Assembly: GCF_937891065.1 (NCBI RefSeq) | Contig: NZ_CALAEQ010000008.1 | Location: 1-50,628, forward strand | DNA length: 50,628 bases | Reading direction: 5' to 3' | From: an uncultured Lutibacter sp. | GTDB lineage: Bacteria > Bacteroidota > Bacteroidia > Flavobacteriales > Flavobacteriaceae | Part shown: piece by piece, positions 21,651 to 38,112 of the stretch | Numbering within the stretch: position 1 is the first letter of the stretch | How the letters are laid out: every line of letters starts with the position of its first letter | Notes under the pieces: model-generated | Seen by the model: the letters and a program-made list of their open reading frames with translations, nothing else | Told to the model about the DNA's origin: nothing | Database searches by the model: none | Made by a program: the position numbers and the translations under genes

Positions 21651-22256
21651 TTAAATAAATGTTAATATAAAAGGAACTAAAAATGGTACAATTATAGTTA
21701 ATACAACGCCACTAAAAACAGCTATAATTGCCCATTCTTTCCCTGTACTTTCTGAAATAATAGGCAAACAGGTATCCATTGAGGTGGCACCACCAGAAGC
21801 AATACCACCTAGTTTACCAAAATATTTCACGAAAAATGGTGTTGCTAAAAGCGTAATTATTTCTCTTGAGATATTAGACAATAAGGCGATAACACCTAAA
21901 GTTTCTCCGCTAATTTCTGTTATAAATATAGAAGACAAACTATAGTATCCAAATCCCGCAGCTACAGCCATAGCTTCTGTTATACTAATTTTAGAAATAA
22001 AAAAAGATGTTACTGCTGCGCCAATTAATGAACCTAAAATAACACATAGTGGAACTAGTATAATTTTAATTTTTGTTTCACGAATTACGCTAAGTGCATT
22101 ACTATCTGCCCCAATACCAATACCTACAAAAAGCATTAACGCATATAGTGAGTACATTGAAAAATCATTTTCCATCAAAAAATCTGGCAAGAATTTGTAT
22201 AGCCCTAAAACTACACCCACTATAAACATTAAAAGTATGATGATGCTATTTTTCAT
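21651..22256 (-). CDS. lysO: LysO-family lysine exporter, C-terminal subunit
   Basis: This matches the C-terminal two thirds of E. coli LysO (YbjE), an L-lysine exporter of the inner membrane. Recognisable segments are AMAVAAGFGYYSLSS, SNISREIITLL and GGATSMDTCLPI. The protein has 201 residues and about six membrane spans. I chose the ATG at 22256 because it overlaps the stop of the N-terminal subunit in the sequence ATGAAAAATAG, which allows coupled translation. With its partner it makes about 294 residues, matching single-chain LysO. The neighbourhood suggests lysine or hydroxylysine as cargo. Confidence 0.85.
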   Translation of the reverse strand: MKNSIIILLMFIVGVVLGLYKFLPDFLMENDFSMYSLYALMLFVGIGIGADSNALSVIRETKIKIILVPLCVILGSLIGAAVTSFFISKISITEAMAVAAGFGYYSLSSIFITEISGETLGVIALLSNISREIITLLATPFFVKYFGKLGGIASGGATSMDTCLPIISESTGKEWAIIAVFSGVVLTIIVPFLVPFILTFI

Positions 22257-22527
22257 TTTTTTGGATAAAGAATAATTTATAAGTGATGTACGCAAGAATT
22301 AGGCTTCCTAATATGGCTCCAAAAGTTATTAAAATAGCCTGAAAACCAATGTTGGCAATATTAGAAATAATTGTTTTATTTAAACCAACACCAATTCCTA
22401 AAAGAAATAATAACATGTAAATAATTAGTGTTGTAGCCTTGTTTGAAAATAGAATGAATTTGGTTTTATTTCTGAGAACATATCCAAGAATTAAACCTAT
22501 TGTCATTAATAGTAATACTGGTATCAT
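22246..22527 (-). CDS. LysO-family lysine exporter, N-terminal subunit
   Basis: This 93-residue membrane protein has three predicted helices and corresponds to the N-terminal third of LysO (DUF340), including the segment MLLFLLGIGVGLNKTI. It ends in NEK and its last 11 coding bases overlap the start of the C-terminal subunit in another frame. Two-gene LysO systems exist in the Bacteroidota, so I read this as a genuine split rather than a broken gene. It lies 157 bp downstream of the beta-galactosidase gene on the same strand, so read-through from the glycosidase operon is possible. Confidence 0.8.
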   Translation of the reverse strand: MIPVLLLMTIGLILGYVLRNKTKFILFSNKATTLIIYMLLFLLGIGVGLNKTIISNIANIGFQAILITFGAILGSLILAYITYKLFFIQKNEK

Positions 22528-22684
22528 ATTATTTAAGGTGATTATATTTAGATTTTAATTGAGTGTTTGCTCCGTTGTACAATCTACTTATTCTTTTTTG
22601 TAATTAAATAGAATGAGTGGAATTTTAGTTGTTTTTAGACAAGTGAGATAAAATTCTAATCACTATTTTTTATATTTCTTTTAA

Positions 22685-25600
22685 CTATTTTATTATTGAT
22701 GGTTGAATTGTAAAAGAATAACTATAGGATTTATTAGCCAATATCATATATTCTGGGTGTGGTAATCTTCCCCAAGACGTATCACCTCCAACACCCATCT
22801 GTAAATAATCAATATTCCATTGAATGGTTTTACCAATTTTAATGTCTGCGCCATGTTTTTTAGTTACAGGAACTAGCCCAGATGCTGATTTTACAGCGTC
22901 ATCACTATTAAAATCGAGCTCTTCCATATTAAATGGCCATACGCTAGCATTTAATAATTGCTCCGAGGAAACTTTTAATGTAATGTCTTTAGAAGCTACT
23001 TTCATCCACCTAACATCCGTTTTATTACCTGTCTCTTGTGGTCGTAGATAGCGATGGAAATGTGCTTCAATTTTTCCTGAATGCACTCTAGTTTTAACAC
23101 CTGTTTTTCTGTCCCAATAACTTTCATCAGGACCATTACCATACCAAGATAGTTCTGTAAAATTGTTTGGAATTCTGATATACATTCCTATTCTTGGTAG
23201 ATTTGGCAAATCTTTTTTATTTGGACTGAAAGAATAATCTAATTTTAAATTTCCATTATTTGAAATCAAATAATTTACAAAAACAGTCGCTTCATTATTT
23301 GGAAGATTGTACTGAACTTTAAAAGAAACTCCATTTTCATTATTTTTTGGTTCTTTAATTAATTTTGATGTGTAATTGTAAGATGCATTTTGCCATACTC
23401 TCGCCCATTTATCCATTCCATTTCCCAAATCATTATCAGTTGGAGGTCTCCAAAAATTAGGACGAATTGGTTGATTTGTAATTTCTTTTCCATCAAAAAG
23501 CCAAGAAATAATTTCACCAGAATTAGCGTTTATTTTTAAATCAGTTTTATCATTTTTTAACTCAATTCCGTTTTTAGATGCAATAATTTCTATTGTGTTT
23601 CCTTTTGAATTTAAAACTGATTTTCTAATTCCTTTATTTAGTATAAATTGATCCCAGGCAAGTTCATGACCTTTAGGTAATAAATTTGTAGCCTCTTTTT
23701 GAAGTAGACTTACTTCTAGAATGTACTCTTTACTAGAGTCAAAACTTTCAGGAAAATTTTGTAAAATAAAGTTGCTTTTTTGCTGAGGTAATACATCAAT
23801 ACTTGCAACTCTTCCTTCATATAAAGTTTCACCATCAGCCAATATTTTCCAAGCAATATTTTTATCTGAAAAATCAGCAAAAAAATTTTTATTTTCAATT
23901 TCAATTTTACCATTTCCTAAATAATTGAATTGAGAAGGTTCATATACTTTCTTAACCTCTGTTAAATGAGGATGTGGGTTTCTATATGGATCAACTAAAC
24001 CATTATTTAAAAAGTTACCATCAGTTGGTAAATCTGGATGAAAATCGTGTCCGTACGCTAAATATGGTTTACCATTCTCATCTTTATATTCTAAACTTTG
24101 ATCTACCCAATCCCAGATATATCCACCTTGTAGATTTGGATATTTTTCAATGATATCCCAATAATCTTGTAAATTACCAACTGAATTCCCCATCGCATGA
24201 GCATATTCAATCATTATTGAAGGTTTGTTAGAATTCGATTTTCCATGATTAATTAAATCTTCGGGTCTTGGATACATTGGGCAATATAAATCTGTATAAT
24301 CATCTTTCCCTGCTGGTTCGTATTGAACTATTCTTGTTGAATCATTTTCTTTTAGCCATTTGTAAGTGGTTCTAAAAACGTCACCTTCTCCTGCTTCATT
24401 TCCTAGAGACCAAGAATAAATTGAAGCATGGTTTCTATCTCTATAAAACATACGTTTTGTACGCATTAAATGTGCTGGCAACCAAGATATTTCATTTCCG
24501 ATTTGGGTATTTTTATCTATAGCCAACGGATGACTTTCTATGTTTGCTTCATCAATTACATATAAGCCATAAGTATCACATAAATCTAACCAATAAGGAT
24601 CGTTTGGATAATGTGAAGAACGTACCGCATTTATATTGTTTTGCTTCATTAATTGAATATCCTTTTCCATCGATTCTTTAGAAACTACATGACCTGTAAA
24701 TGGATCAGTTTCGTGTCGGTCGACCCCTTTAAAATAAATAGCTTTTCCATTAATTAGTACTTGGCTATTGATAATTTCTACACGTTTAAAACCTATGTTT
24801 TTTGTAATAAATTGATTGTTATTTGAATGTTCATCATCAATCAAACTGATTTTTAATTGATATAATTTAGGAAGTTCAGCAGACCATTTTTTTACATGTT
24901 CAATTATTTTTTTTGAAGTAGAACTAATAGAAGAGTTTGCTGCTATTTCAATAGTTTCTAATGACTTAAAAAGAGGTTTTTCATTATCCAAAATTTCAAC
25001 TAAAATGGCTCTAGTAGCTTTTTTATCAGTAGCATTTGAAATTGAAATAGTTCCGTTGAAAATTCCATGAGTATAGGAGCTATCAAGATTTGTGTTTGCG
25101 TAATAATCTGAAACAAACACTTTTGGTTGTGCATATAAATAAACGTCACGCTCAATGCCACTCATTCTTAACATATCCTGACTTTCTAAATAACTGGCAT
25201 CGCTCCATCTAAATAATTGTAGTGCTATTAGGTTTTCACCTTCCTTTAAAAATTCTGTGATTTTAAATTCAGCAGGCGTTTTACTGCCTTGTGAATAGCC
25301 GACATAATCGCCATTTACATAAACATACATAGCAGATTTTACACCAGCAAAATGGAGAATAACATCTTCAGATAAAAACTCATTGTTGAGTATTATCTCT
25401 TTTCTGTAAGTTCCAACTGGGTTATAATCGGTTGGGGCATTGGGCCATTTTGTAGTAAACGGGTAGCGTTCATCTAAATAAATTGGATGTCCATAACCTT
25501 CAACTTCCCAGTTTGCAGGAACAGGAATTGTTGTCCAGTCACTATCGTTAAATTTAATATTTTGAAATGTTGTTGGGCGTTGTTTTGGATCTTTTACCCA

Positions 25601-25825
25601 ATTAAATTTCCAATCTCCGTTTAAATTTAAAAAACGATTTGAATCCTCTTTTTCTGAAATATCATCAGATTCAAAACCAAAAAAAGTTGCTCTTGGAAAT
25701 AATTTATTTTCTTCAAATATTTCGTGATTGTAATGATAAGTTTGTTCTAAAATTGGTTTCAAAGTTTTTTCATTACAGCTAAAAAAACTAATGGTTAGAA
25801 ATATTATAAATACTGTTCTGTACAT
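22685..25825 (-). CDS. Periplasmic GH2 beta-galactosidase (LacZ-type), lipoprotein
   Basis: This five-domain glycoside hydrolase family 2 beta-galactosidase has 1046 residues. The N-terminus ends in a lipobox (ISFFSC, Cys17), so the enzyme is a lipoprotein of the periplasm or outer membrane, unlike cytoplasmic LacZ. Domains in order are sugar-binding (about 65-235), immunoglobulin-like, the TIM barrel with acid/base Glu477 in SLGNEAGEG and nucleophile Glu540 in [10 protein letters not shown], and the C-terminal small-chain domain (about 760-1040). It is third in the operon with the GH63-like enzyme and the kinase/lyase fusion. In this context it may remove the beta-galactose O-linked to hydroxylysine. 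Lactose or plant galactosides are the alternative. Confidence 0.93.
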
Positions 25826-37767: not shown

Positions 37768-37810
37768 GAAAAACATTATAAATCTAAAGTAATTATTTGA
37801 GTTTATTTTA

Positions 37811-37840
37811 AAAAGGCTGTCTGAAAAGACAGTCTTTTTA
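37811..37840 (+). terminator. Rho-independent terminator after susD
   Basis: The 12-bp arms AAAAGGCTGTCT (37811-37822) and AGACAGTCTTTT (37827-37838), with one G-U pair, enclose a GAAA tetraloop and lead into T. The stem shares the AGACAGTCTTTTT sequence with the long hairpin at 49086-49227. Confidence 0.88.
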
Positions 37841-37871
37841 TGAATCAGCAAATATTTTGAGAAATTTAAAC

Positions 37872-38112
37872 ATGAAAAAAGTATTGATTTTAGGAACTGG
37901 AATGGTGGTAAAACCAATTGTTCACTATTTACTTGATAATAATATTCAGTTACGATAGTAAGTCGAACGAAAGAAAAAGCTTTAAAAGTTTTGGAAGGGT
38001 TTTCAAATGGTAAAGCAGTTGATGTGGCAATTAATAATAATGCTTCTTATTTGAAAGAAAGAGACTATTGTTTCAAGAATGCTAGATTTTGTTGAACCTA
38101 AAACACTGTAAT
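37872..38112 (+). pseudogene. Decayed saccharopine dehydrogenase gene fragment
   Basis: The ATG at 37872 opens MKKVLILGTGMVVKPIVHYL, the Rossmann start of saccharopine dehydrogenase/reductase, but hits a stop after 28 codons. The next frame continues with TIVSRTKEKALKVLEGFSNG and KAVDVAINNNASYLKE, again homologous, then degenerates. A later frame reads ETIVSRMLDFVEPKTL and stops. Only about 75 residues of a protein that normally exceeds 400 residues remain, with at least one frameshift and a large deletion. The intact enzyme interconverts saccharopine and 2-aminoadipate semialdehyde in lysine metabolism. That semialdehyde is also the product predicted for the kinase/lyase fusion in this locus. 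Confidence 0.75.

What the first reader, a model, noticed from the sequence alone, without database searches (positions are those of the whole stretch)
22246..38112. Candidate utilisation locus for collagen-type glycosylated hydroxylysine
The sequence shows a GH63-like lipoprotein, a GH2 beta-galactosidase lipoprotein, a kinase/M23/class III PLP fusion, a LysO exporter, a SusCD pair, a SusR-like regulator and a saccharopine dehydrogenase wreck. From known families, AGPHD1-like kinases phosphorylate hydroxylysine and AGXT2L2-like enzymes convert 5-phosphohydroxylysine to 2-aminoadipate semialdehyde, ammonia and phosphate. GH63 includes alpha-1,2-glucosidases. Collagen carries Glc-alpha-1,2-Gal-beta-O-hydroxylysine. 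By inference, SusCD imports the glycoside or glycopeptide, the two periplasmic enzymes strip glucose and galactose, and the fusion breaks down the amino acid. I know of no described locus of this type. Phosphoethanolamine-type substrates remain an alternative.
Basis: partly seen in the sequence, partly recalled or inferred. Interest (0 to 1): 0.87.

Follow-up and report, generated by a model that had tools for sequence, protein, structure and literature searches.

The report
Collagen sugar–hydroxylysine utilisation gene cluster
A marine-type bacterium carries a gene cluster that very probably imports the sugar-decorated amino acid typical of collagen, removes its glucose and galactose, and breaks down the hydroxylysine left over, a route for which I found no earlier description in bacteria.

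Summary
The cluster is real. On the minus strand lie a GH63 (YgjK-type) lipoprotein, a kinase–M23–class III PLP fusion and a LacZ-type GH2, 4 and 10 bp apart, then a two-gene LysO; divergent are a TPR/LuxR-like regulator and SusCD. The "saccharopine dehydrogenase wreck" is a degenerate remnant of unproved identity. GH63 lies immediately upstream of the fusion in 26 of 80 related loci; 20 keep strict GH63–fusion–GH2 order. Strongest are neighbours in relatives: hydroxyproline-catabolism genes in 28 of 80 loci and, in four genomes, L-piperidine-6-carboxylate dehydrogenase plus 2-oxoadipate dioxygenase/decarboxylase, expected downstream of 5-phosphohydroxylysine cleavage but not of phosphoethanolamine. 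One genome has SusCD–HGLS–P6C dehydrogenase divergent from GH63–fusion–GH2. Sinorhizobium/Ensifer plasmids pair the fusion with other α- and β-glycosidases. YgjK, the closest solved structure, has been crystallised with Glc-α1,2-Gal, the collagen disaccharide. Against: no biochemistry; the window's own genome shows no hydroxyproline epimerase or HGLS; 10 stretches around distant fusions show none of these partners. My searches found no described locus of this kind: a new variant of a known kind (PUL).

The parts
28867..30870 (-). GH63 YgjK-like alpha-glucosidase, 667 aa, lipoprotein signal by eye; proposed to remove glucose from Glc-alpha1,2-Gal-Hyl
   Evidence: PF22422 5e-64, PF21152 YgjK_N, PF03200; PRK10137 alpha-glucosidase 359.6 bits, cut-off 625; best PDB match YgjK; YgjK D324, D501, E727 = D328, D446, E639, kept in 33 of 33 rows
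25836..28862 (-). Trifunctional fusion, 1008 aa: APH-type kinase (about 1-345), M23 domain (438-534), class III PLP phospho-lyase (about 582-1002); proposed hydroxylysine kinase plus 5-phosphohydroxylysine phospho-lyase
   Evidence: Pfam; PRK06148 1100 bits, cut-off 1128; PLP domain best PDB match ETNPPL 6tor 424 bits; key kinase, M23 and PLP residues invariant in 78 of 78 rows
22685..25825 (-). GH2 LacZ-type beta-galactosidase, 1046 aa, lipoprotein signal by eye; proposed to remove galactose from Gal-beta-Hyl
   Evidence: NCBIfam Bga2A 1019 > 999; glutamates 477 and 540 kept in 40 of 40 rows (their catalytic role recalled from LacZ)
22246..22527 (-). LysO N-terminal half
   Evidence: PF03956 41.6 bits; 89% in Lutibacter maritimus L075 and 38% in L117
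21651..22295 (-). LysO C-terminal half (true start probably later than the listed TTG)
   Evidence: PF03956 227 bits; 90% in L075 and 48% in L117
31100..32794 (+). TPR protein with LuxR-like C-terminus (SusR-like); probable local regulator
   Evidence: TPR_12; GerE 19.2 bits, cut-off 23.5; homologue at 70-90% in 13 of 80 loci
33095..36202 (+). SusC-type TonB-dependent importer
   Evidence: TIGR04056 837 bits, cut-off 368
36220..37767 (+). SusD-type surface lipoprotein
   Evidence: PF07980 and PF14322 above cut-off
37872..38112 (+). Degenerate NAD-binding-protein remnant (the 'saccharopine dehydrogenase wreck'); probably not part of the system
   Evidence: Two pieces in different frames, weak Shikimate_DH E 0.07 and 0.03; stops and frame break visible

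Best explanation
A utilisation locus for glucosyl-galactosyl-hydroxylysine (Glc-alpha1,2-Gal-beta-O-Hyl), or short peptides bearing it, the collagen-type modification. SusCD imports it across the outer membrane. The two lipoprotein glycosidases, probably periplasmic, remove glucose (GH63) then galactose (GH2). Hydroxylysine enters the cytosol, where the fusion phosphorylates it (APH domain) and eliminates phosphate and ammonia (PLP domain) to give 2-aminoadipate semialdehyde/P6C. The genome's P6C dehydrogenase (contig C241) oxidises this to 2-aminoadipate. LysO may export excess hydroxylysine, a lysine analogue. Shown here: gene content, order, conservation, catalytic residues, co-location with hydroxyproline and lysine-type catabolic genes in relatives. 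Inferred: all substrates, the order of steps, localisation, the role of M23 and the fate of 2-aminoadipate in this organism.
For: GH63 within 300 bp upstream of the fusion in 26 of 80 loci; strict GH63-fusion-GH2 in 20 of 80. In 199 Flavobacteriaceae genomes 15 of 18 with GH63 have the trifunctional fusion (Fisher p 2e-8); a 16th has it cut by a contig end, and the other 2 have a 754-761 aa frame matching kinase and PLP parts elsewhere. Hydroxyproline genes: proline-racemase family in 28 of 80 loci, split by similarity into 4-hydroxyproline epimerase type in 23 loci (two scanned members 563 and 579 bits, cut-off 376) and trans-3-hydroxyproline dehydratase type in 15 (two scanned 358 and 370 bits, cut-off 540, so below it); pyrroline-2-carboxylate reductase above cut-off in 2 of 2 scanned. 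19 of 39 fusion genomes with a proline-racemase gene have it within 15 kb. P6C dehydrogenase (812 and 826 bits, cut-off 730) and HGLS (PF07063) beside fusion and glycosidase genes in L047 and L116, and by similarity in L090 and L129; HGLS without P6C dehydrogenase in the stretches read of L128 and L063/L130. Own P6C dehydrogenase 814 bits, cut-off 730. YgjK bound to 2-O-alpha-Glc-Gal (3w7w) at Foldseek ranks 4 and 6. Sinorhizobium and Ensifer analogue.
Against: No activity data. The PLP domain's best solved relative is ethanolamine-phosphate phospho-lyase; kinase folds nearest are homoserine, amicoumacin and (rank 7) aminopropanol kinases, which do not single out hydroxylysine. The window's genome (95% complete) gave no proline-racemase family match and no HGLS match. 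By the clustering 28 of 80 loci show neither glycosidase nor proline-racemase genes, though several are cut short and two of them (L029, L052) hold part of a GH63 or GH2 gene. Of 10 stretches around fusions of distant Bacteroidota (L118-L127), none showed GH63, GH2 or proline-racemase matches. In the phylum survey 3 of 7 GH63 genomes lack a fusion-like match. HGLS is not clearly enriched genome-wide in fusion genomes (7 of 47 against 16 of 152; hand count), only co-located. The GH63 model is modest (pLDDT 72.5, under 50 at 420-468, which includes the acid D446). Loci are phylogenetically related, so counts are not independent.
Confidence: 0.85

Rival explanations
1. The fusion degrades ethanolamine or aminopropanol (kinase, then phospho-lyase to an aldehyde), and the glycosidases act on a glycoside of that amino alcohol.
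For: Best solved PLP relative is ETNPPL; an aminopropanol kinase is rank 7 among the kinase's fold matches.
Against: Neighbouring P6C dehydrogenase and HGLS have no known role in acetaldehyde or propionaldehyde metabolism; hydroxyproline genes co-locate; a Lys/Arg/Orn-type binding protein (142 bits, below that model's cut-off of 256) sits beside the Sinorhizobium fusion.
Confidence: 0.06
2. The glycosidases and SusCD serve an ordinary alpha-glucoside/beta-galactoside glycan, and the fusion sits in the operon for an unrelated reason.
For: GH2 is a generic LacZ type; outside the family GH63 occurs without a fusion-like match (G287, G309, G417); 10 of 10 stretches around distant fusions lack the glycosidases.
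Against: The pairing recurs with tight spacing and with GH42 instead of GH2 in a Flavobacterium-like genome and in Sinorhizobium. In G081 the GH63-GH2 pair lies 32 bp from a trans-3-hydroxyproline dehydratase-type gene.
Confidence: 0.06
3. Sugars only: the bacterium feeds on glucose and galactose from collagen glycosides and exports the hydroxylysine by LysO; the fusion only detoxifies leaked hydroxylysine.
For: LysO adjoins GH2 here and in L075; in L117, from a genome with no fusion-like match, SusCD-LysO-GH2-GH63 stand together. The own genome gave no HGLS match.
Against: The fusion lies between the two glycosidases with 4 and 10 bp gaps; the genome has P6C dehydrogenase; LysO is found in 1 of 80 fusion loci.
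Confidence: 0.1

Closest known systems
Animal hydroxylysine catabolism: HYKK (AGPHD1) and PHYKPL (AGXT2L2)
   Same: Same two reactions proposed: hydroxylysine kinase, then 5-phosphohydroxylysine ammonio-phospholyase. PMC9283133 passages state that AGXT2L2 is a lyase acting on phosphohydroxylysine; PMC5200902 passages name HYKK and PHYKPL as the hydroxylysine pathway. That the product is 2-aminoadipate semialdehyde, and that Veiga-da-Cunha 2012 (not held) used bacterial kinase-lyase fusions as its clue, I recall.
   Different: One polypeptide with an extra M23 domain, coded in an operon with import and deglycosylation genes.
E. coli YgjK (GH63)
   Same: Catalytic D324, D501, E727 conserved; YgjK E727A was crystallised with 2-O-alpha-Glc-alpha-Gal (3w7w, title seen).
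   Different: About 26% identity in the structural alignment; shorter; lipoprotein by eye; coupled to amino-acid catabolism.
Bacteroidetes polysaccharide utilisation loci (Sus-type PULs)
   Same: SusCD, lipoprotein glycosidases and an adjacent regulator.
   Different: The substrate appears to be a glycosylated amino acid; the operon also codes for breakdown of the aglycone.
Mammalian PGGHG (GH65), which removes glucose from the collagen disaccharide
   Same: Proposed same reaction (PMC8626586 passages).
   Different: GH65, not GH63; eukaryotic.
L-lysine catabolism via P6C dehydrogenase, 2-oxoadipate and HGLS (pathway recalled)
   Same: P6C dehydrogenase and HGLS genes beside the locus in relatives.
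   Different: Entry from hydroxylysine via the fusion rather than from lysine.

Membership tests
Sus-type PUL | Adjacent SusC and SusD genes | tested here: met
   TIGR04056, PF07980, PF14322
Sus-type PUL | Linked glycosidases and regulator | tested here: met
   GH63, GH2 and TPR/LuxR-like gene adjacent and recurrent; regulation itself untested
GH63 (YgjK type) | Catalytic acid and base with (alpha/alpha)6 fold | tested here: met
   D446 and E639 in 33 of 33 rows; Foldseek ranks 1-8 are YgjK, from a modest model
GH63 (YgjK type) | NCBIfam PRK10137 equivalog cut-off | tested here: not met
   359.6 bits against 625: a relative, not an ortholog by that model
GH2 LacZ-type beta-galactosidase | Family profile above cut-off and two catalytic glutamates | tested here: met
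   Bga2A 1019 > 999; E477 and E540 in 40 of 40 rows
PRK06148 kinase-M23-PLP fusion family | Full-length match over the curated cut-off | tested here: inconclusive
   Full-length alignment but 1100 bits against 1128; the Sinorhizobium member scores 1459
Hydroxylysine kinase / PHYKPL | Activity on hydroxylysine and 5-phosphohydroxylysine | not testable with these tools
   Motif residues intact; otherwise context only
M23 peptidase | Zn ligands HxxxD and HxH plus catalytic His (motifs recalled) | tested here: met
   H439, D443, H493, H529, H531 in 78 of 78 rows; activity untested
LysO exporter | Lys_export profile | tested here: met
   PF03956 above cut-off in both halves
Saccharopine dehydrogenase (the wreck) | Saccharopine dehydrogenase profile match | tested here: not met
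   Only weak Shikimate_DH hits in Pfam; the pieces are short

The most novel reading that the evidence does not exclude
Bacteria from at least two phyla have independently assembled dedicated glyco-amino-acid utilisation systems for the collagen Glc-Gal-hydroxylysine unit. In the trifunctional form the cytosolic M23 domain cuts Hyl-Gly bonds of imported collagen peptides, so one protein releases, phosphorylates and deaminates hydroxylysine.
Probability: 0.2. Interest if true: 0.92.

Novelty: new variant of a known kind. Interest (0 to 1): 0.82.

Why it matters
Collagen is among the most abundant animal proteins, and I found no described bacterial catabolic route for its glycosylated hydroxylysine in the papers I could search (open-licence PMC only, long result lists seen only in part). 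The locus predicts substrates for an uncharacterised and widespread kinase–M23–PLP fusion family, for YgjK-type GH63 enzymes and for a SusCD pair. It gives a clear growth test in marine Flavobacteriaceae and in laboratory Sinorhizobium meliloti. It would extend the PUL idea from glycans to glyco-amino acids and link animal-matrix turnover to bacterial carbon and nitrogen cycling.

Tried and rejected
Phosphoethanolamine or aminopropanol substrate: rejected as the main reading because of the P6C dehydrogenase, HGLS and hydroxyproline neighbours.

Telling kinase specificity by structure: phmmer of the kinase domain found nothing in the PDB up to E 1, and the Foldseek hits are generic small amino-alcohol, sugar and aminoglycoside kinases. 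PHYKPL versus ETNPPL specificity residues could not be compared, because no PHYKPL sequence was at hand.

Collagenase M9 in the own genome: no match, but no control rang either, so uninformative. LysO as a core member: rejected (1 of 80 loci) but kept as an accessory after L117. The saccharopine wreck as part of the pathway: not supported. The idea that G081 and G198 lack any kinase–lyase was dropped after one search found kinase-plus-PLP frames elsewhere in both. Looking for the same partners beside distant Bacteroidota fusions: none of GH63, GH2 or proline-racemase in 10 of 10 stretches (L118–L127); L124 has weak galactokinase-, DapA- and M24-like neighbours, not followed up; in L127 my ORF caller did not even pick out the fusion. 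Promoter scan: no excess over shuffles (79 found against a mean of 88.5).

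
Full report
WHAT IS THERE. The window belongs to a 3.2 Mb, 95% complete genome (G000, contig C8); by fusion identity the nearest named locus is Lutibacter litoralis (L009, 80%), by the glycosidases Lutibacter maritimus (L075, 77–78%). 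On the minus strand, in order of transcription, lie a GH63/YgjK-like lipoprotein (30870–28867), a 1008-aa fusion (28862–25836), a LacZ-type GH2 lipoprotein (25825–22685) and LysO as two ORFs (22527–22246 and 22295–21651). The first three are 4 and 10 bp apart; LysO follows after 157 bp. Divergently lie a TPR protein with a weak LuxR-type match, SusC and SusD. After SusD come a terminator-like hairpin, a degenerate remnant and two tRNA genes.

THE ENZYMES LOOK INTACT. YgjK D324, D501 and E727 correspond to D328, D446 and E639 of the window's GH63, conserved in 33 of 33 aligned rows. The D501 role comes from passages of PMC7263609, D324 and E727 from PDB titles. A modest AlphaFold model (pLDDT 72.5, pTM 0.79) finds YgjK entries as its eight best Foldseek matches, among them 3w7w, YgjK E727A with 2-O-α-D-glucopyranosyl-α-D-galactopyranose. 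That disaccharide is the collagen unit (Glc-α1,2-Gal on hydroxylysine; PMC8626586 passages). In the fusion the central residues of the APH motifs, the M23 zinc ligands and the class III PLP motifs, including lysine 848, are invariant in 78 of 78 rows. The PLP domain's best solved relative is ethanolamine-phosphate phospho-lyase (424 bits), then a bacterial phospholyase, 5g4i. The kinase model (pLDDT 90) is nearest to homoserine and amicoumacin kinases, with an aminopropanol kinase at rank 7. These domains therefore predict a kinase–phospholyase for a hydroxy-amine but do not by themselves choose hydroxylysine.

CONSERVATION. A scan with the fusion gave 80 named loci (the best 80 of 109). Of the 80, GH63 is present in 32, GH2 in 35, both in 27, either in 40. 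GH63 ends within 300 bp of the fusion in 26, and strict GH63–fusion–GH2 order holds in 20. Only 62 loci have at least 22.9 kb, so absences are partly truncation. Gelidibacter, Polaribacter and others contribute several loci each, so counts are not independent. In the 18 loci with well-covered GH63 and SusC matches the enzymes stay at 61–78% identity to the window while SusC and SusD range from 34 to 78%, which suggests that the importer is exchanged around a fixed enzyme trio. In 199 Flavobacteriaceae genomes the trifunctional fusion occurs in 46 and GH63 in 18; 15 of the 18 have both (Fisher p 2e-8). G192 is a 16th, its fusion cut by a contig end. The other two, G081 and G198, carry a 754–761 aa frame matching the kinase and PLP parts elsewhere.

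FIRST CLUE: HYDROXYPROLINE. Clustering neighbours and naming representatives shows proline-racemase family genes in 28 of 80 loci, D-amino-acid-dehydrogenase-like genes in 29, 2,5-dioxovalerate-dehydrogenase-like ALDH in 17, OCD-type reductases in 14 and DapA-type genes in 9; the second, third and last are below their models' cut-offs. By similarity the first group splits into 4-hydroxyproline epimerase type in 23 loci (two scanned members 563 and 579 bits, cut-off 376) and trans-3-hydroxyproline dehydratase type in 15 loci (best model the dehydratase, but 358 and 370 bits against a cut-off of 540). Two of two scanned OCD genes pass the pyrroline-2-carboxylate reductase cut-off. At genome level a second, lower-scoring proline-racemase type, which I take for the dehydratase (split by hand on score and profile range), occurs in 15 of 46 fusion genomes against 6 of 153 others (p 7e-7), and any proline-racemase gene in 39 of 46 against 79 of 153 (p 3e-5). 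Of the 39, 19 have it within 15 kb of the fusion. In G081 the reductase, dehydratase-type gene, GH63 and GH2 form one run without the fusion. Hydroxyproline and hydroxylysine together point to collagen (established knowledge). Against: the window's own genome gave no proline-racemase match, and 28 of 80 loci cluster with neither glycosidases nor proline-racemase genes, although several of these are short and two hold part of a glycosidase gene.

SECOND CLUE: THE PRODUCT'S PATHWAY. If the fusion makes 2-aminoadipate semialdehyde, the next enzymes should be P6C dehydrogenase and those acting on 2-oxoadipate and D-2-hydroxyglutarate (pathway recalled). Just these sit beside the locus in some relatives. 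L047 (Aestuariivivens): a protein 53% identical over 827 residues to the YdiJ-like protein of L116, then a SusR-like gene, a LysR-like gene (by eye), HGLS, P6C dehydrogenase (812 bits, cut-off 730), a permease-like gene (by eye) and the fusion, with GH2 and a cut-off GH63 further on. L116 (Flavobacterium-like; genus guessed): HGLS, P6C dehydrogenase (826), GH63, GH42, a two-domain kinase–PLP fusion and a YdiJ-like D-2-hydroxyglutarate dehydrogenase (582 bits, below its cut-off of 1350). L129 (G019): P6C dehydrogenase–HGLS–SusD–SusC–FecR–ECF divergent from GH63–fusion–GH2, identified by similarity. L090 (G192) has the same importer side. Among 199 genomes HGLS is in 23. Seven fusion genomes (counting G192) have it, and in four it lies 1–10 kb from the fusion (hand count); L063 and G136 are the same species by 100% identity. 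HGLS is not clearly enriched genome-wide in fusion genomes (7 of 47 against 16 of 152). The window's genome has P6C dehydrogenase (814 bits) but no HGLS match, so the last steps there are unknown.

THIRD CLUE: CONVERGENCE. In a Sinorhizobium meliloti strain and an Ensifer adhaerens strain the fusion is followed by a sugar ABC transporter, a GH63/MGH1-like enzyme and a GH42 β-galactosidase, and preceded by a Lys/Arg/Orn-type binding protein and permease (142 bits, below that model's cut-off of 256). No match to these two glycosidases lies beside the fusion in 4 of 4 other alphaproteobacterial plasmids examined (Shinella, Ochrobactrum, S. fredii, Phyllobacterium). Together with GH42 in L116 (and L115 by similarity), the α-glucosidase plus β-galactosidase plus kinase–lyase combination appears to have been assembled more than once. 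Limits: in a phylum survey of 247 genomes GH63 was in 7 and the fusion or its PLP part in 30; 4 of the 7 have a fusion and G417, G287 and G309 do not. Ten stretches around other distant fusions (L118–L127) showed no GH63, GH2 or proline-racemase match, so outside these lineages the fusion works in other settings.

LYSO AND M23. LysO adjoins the locus only in L075 among 80 loci, but also in L117 (G417), as SusCD–LysO–GH2–GH63, in a genome where only aminotransferase-like hits to the fusion were found. Export of hydroxylysine as a lysine analogue is my inference. The M23 domain keeps its motif residues, yet the two-domain fusions lack it (Pfam for L115 and L116), so it is not essential to the chemistry. 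Cutting imported collagen peptides is a guess.

LITERATURE. Ten searches of open-licence PMC text showed me no bacterial locus for glycosylated hydroxylysine; 'hydroxylysine' with 'SusD' gave 0 papers. For some searches only the top 20, 20, 10 and 25 of 170, 4,384, 321 and 130 papers were listed. I saw listings, plus passages of PMC8154272, PMC8626586, PMC7263609, PMC5200902 and PMC9283133; no paper was read whole. Subscription papers are largely missing, so novelty is not proved. Veiga-da-Cunha 2012, which as I recall used bacterial kinase–lyase fusions as its clue, is not held.

VERDICT. A utilisation locus for collagen-type glycosylated hydroxylysine is the best explanation (0.85): a PUL whose substrate is a glyco-amino acid and whose aglycone catabolism is built in. 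The steps are inferred from context and need assays.

Noticed in passing
window 6932-18084: Looks like a [NiFe] hydrogenase cluster with Hyp maturation genes, judged by eye from the proteins and not scanned; a Flavo-1 RNA lies at 7243-7321.
   Followed up: no
window 824-3425: Three consecutive ORFs (239-243 aa) all resemble the same L057 protein at 44-48% over part of their length: a tandem array, TonB-like by eye.
   Followed up: no
window 38609-43358: Run of genes that look like protohaem IX farnesyltransferase and cytochrome c oxidase subunits or assembly factors, by eye.
   Followed up: no
L011, L073, L038, L041, L046 compared with L010, L012-L014: The enzyme trio is conserved while SusCD (34-78% to the window) and the regulator (TPR/LuxR-like or ECF/FecR) are swapped between loci: exchange of import and regulation modules.
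   Followed up: partly
23 of 80 fusion loci, e.g. L059:6009-6440: A small DUF4440 protein is a recurrent neighbour of the fusion and glycosidases; role unknown.
   Followed up: no
L042:13076-16351 and others: A 1091-aa WD40-propeller/amidohydrolase protein lies directly downstream of the fusion in 11 of 80 loci.
   Followed up: no
L102:4660-20946, L104: Sinorhizobium/Ensifer cluster with two LacI regulators, an amino-acid and a sugar ABC transporter, GH63-like and GH42 around the fusion: a tractable test system.
   Followed up: partly
L115, L116, L118-L121: Shorter kinase-PLP fusions (753-785 aa; M23 absent by Pfam in L115 and L116, by length and alignment in the rest) occur across Bacteroidota.
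   Followed up: partly
L124:6325-13440: Beside a distant fusion lie weak galactokinase-like (37%), DapA-like (25%) and M24-like (25%) genes.
   Followed up: no
L024, L027, L019: Tenacibaculum finnmarkense and T. piscium loci hold the fusion inside a hydroxyproline-catabolism island; of the three, GH63 is in the T. piscium stretch only.
   Followed up: no
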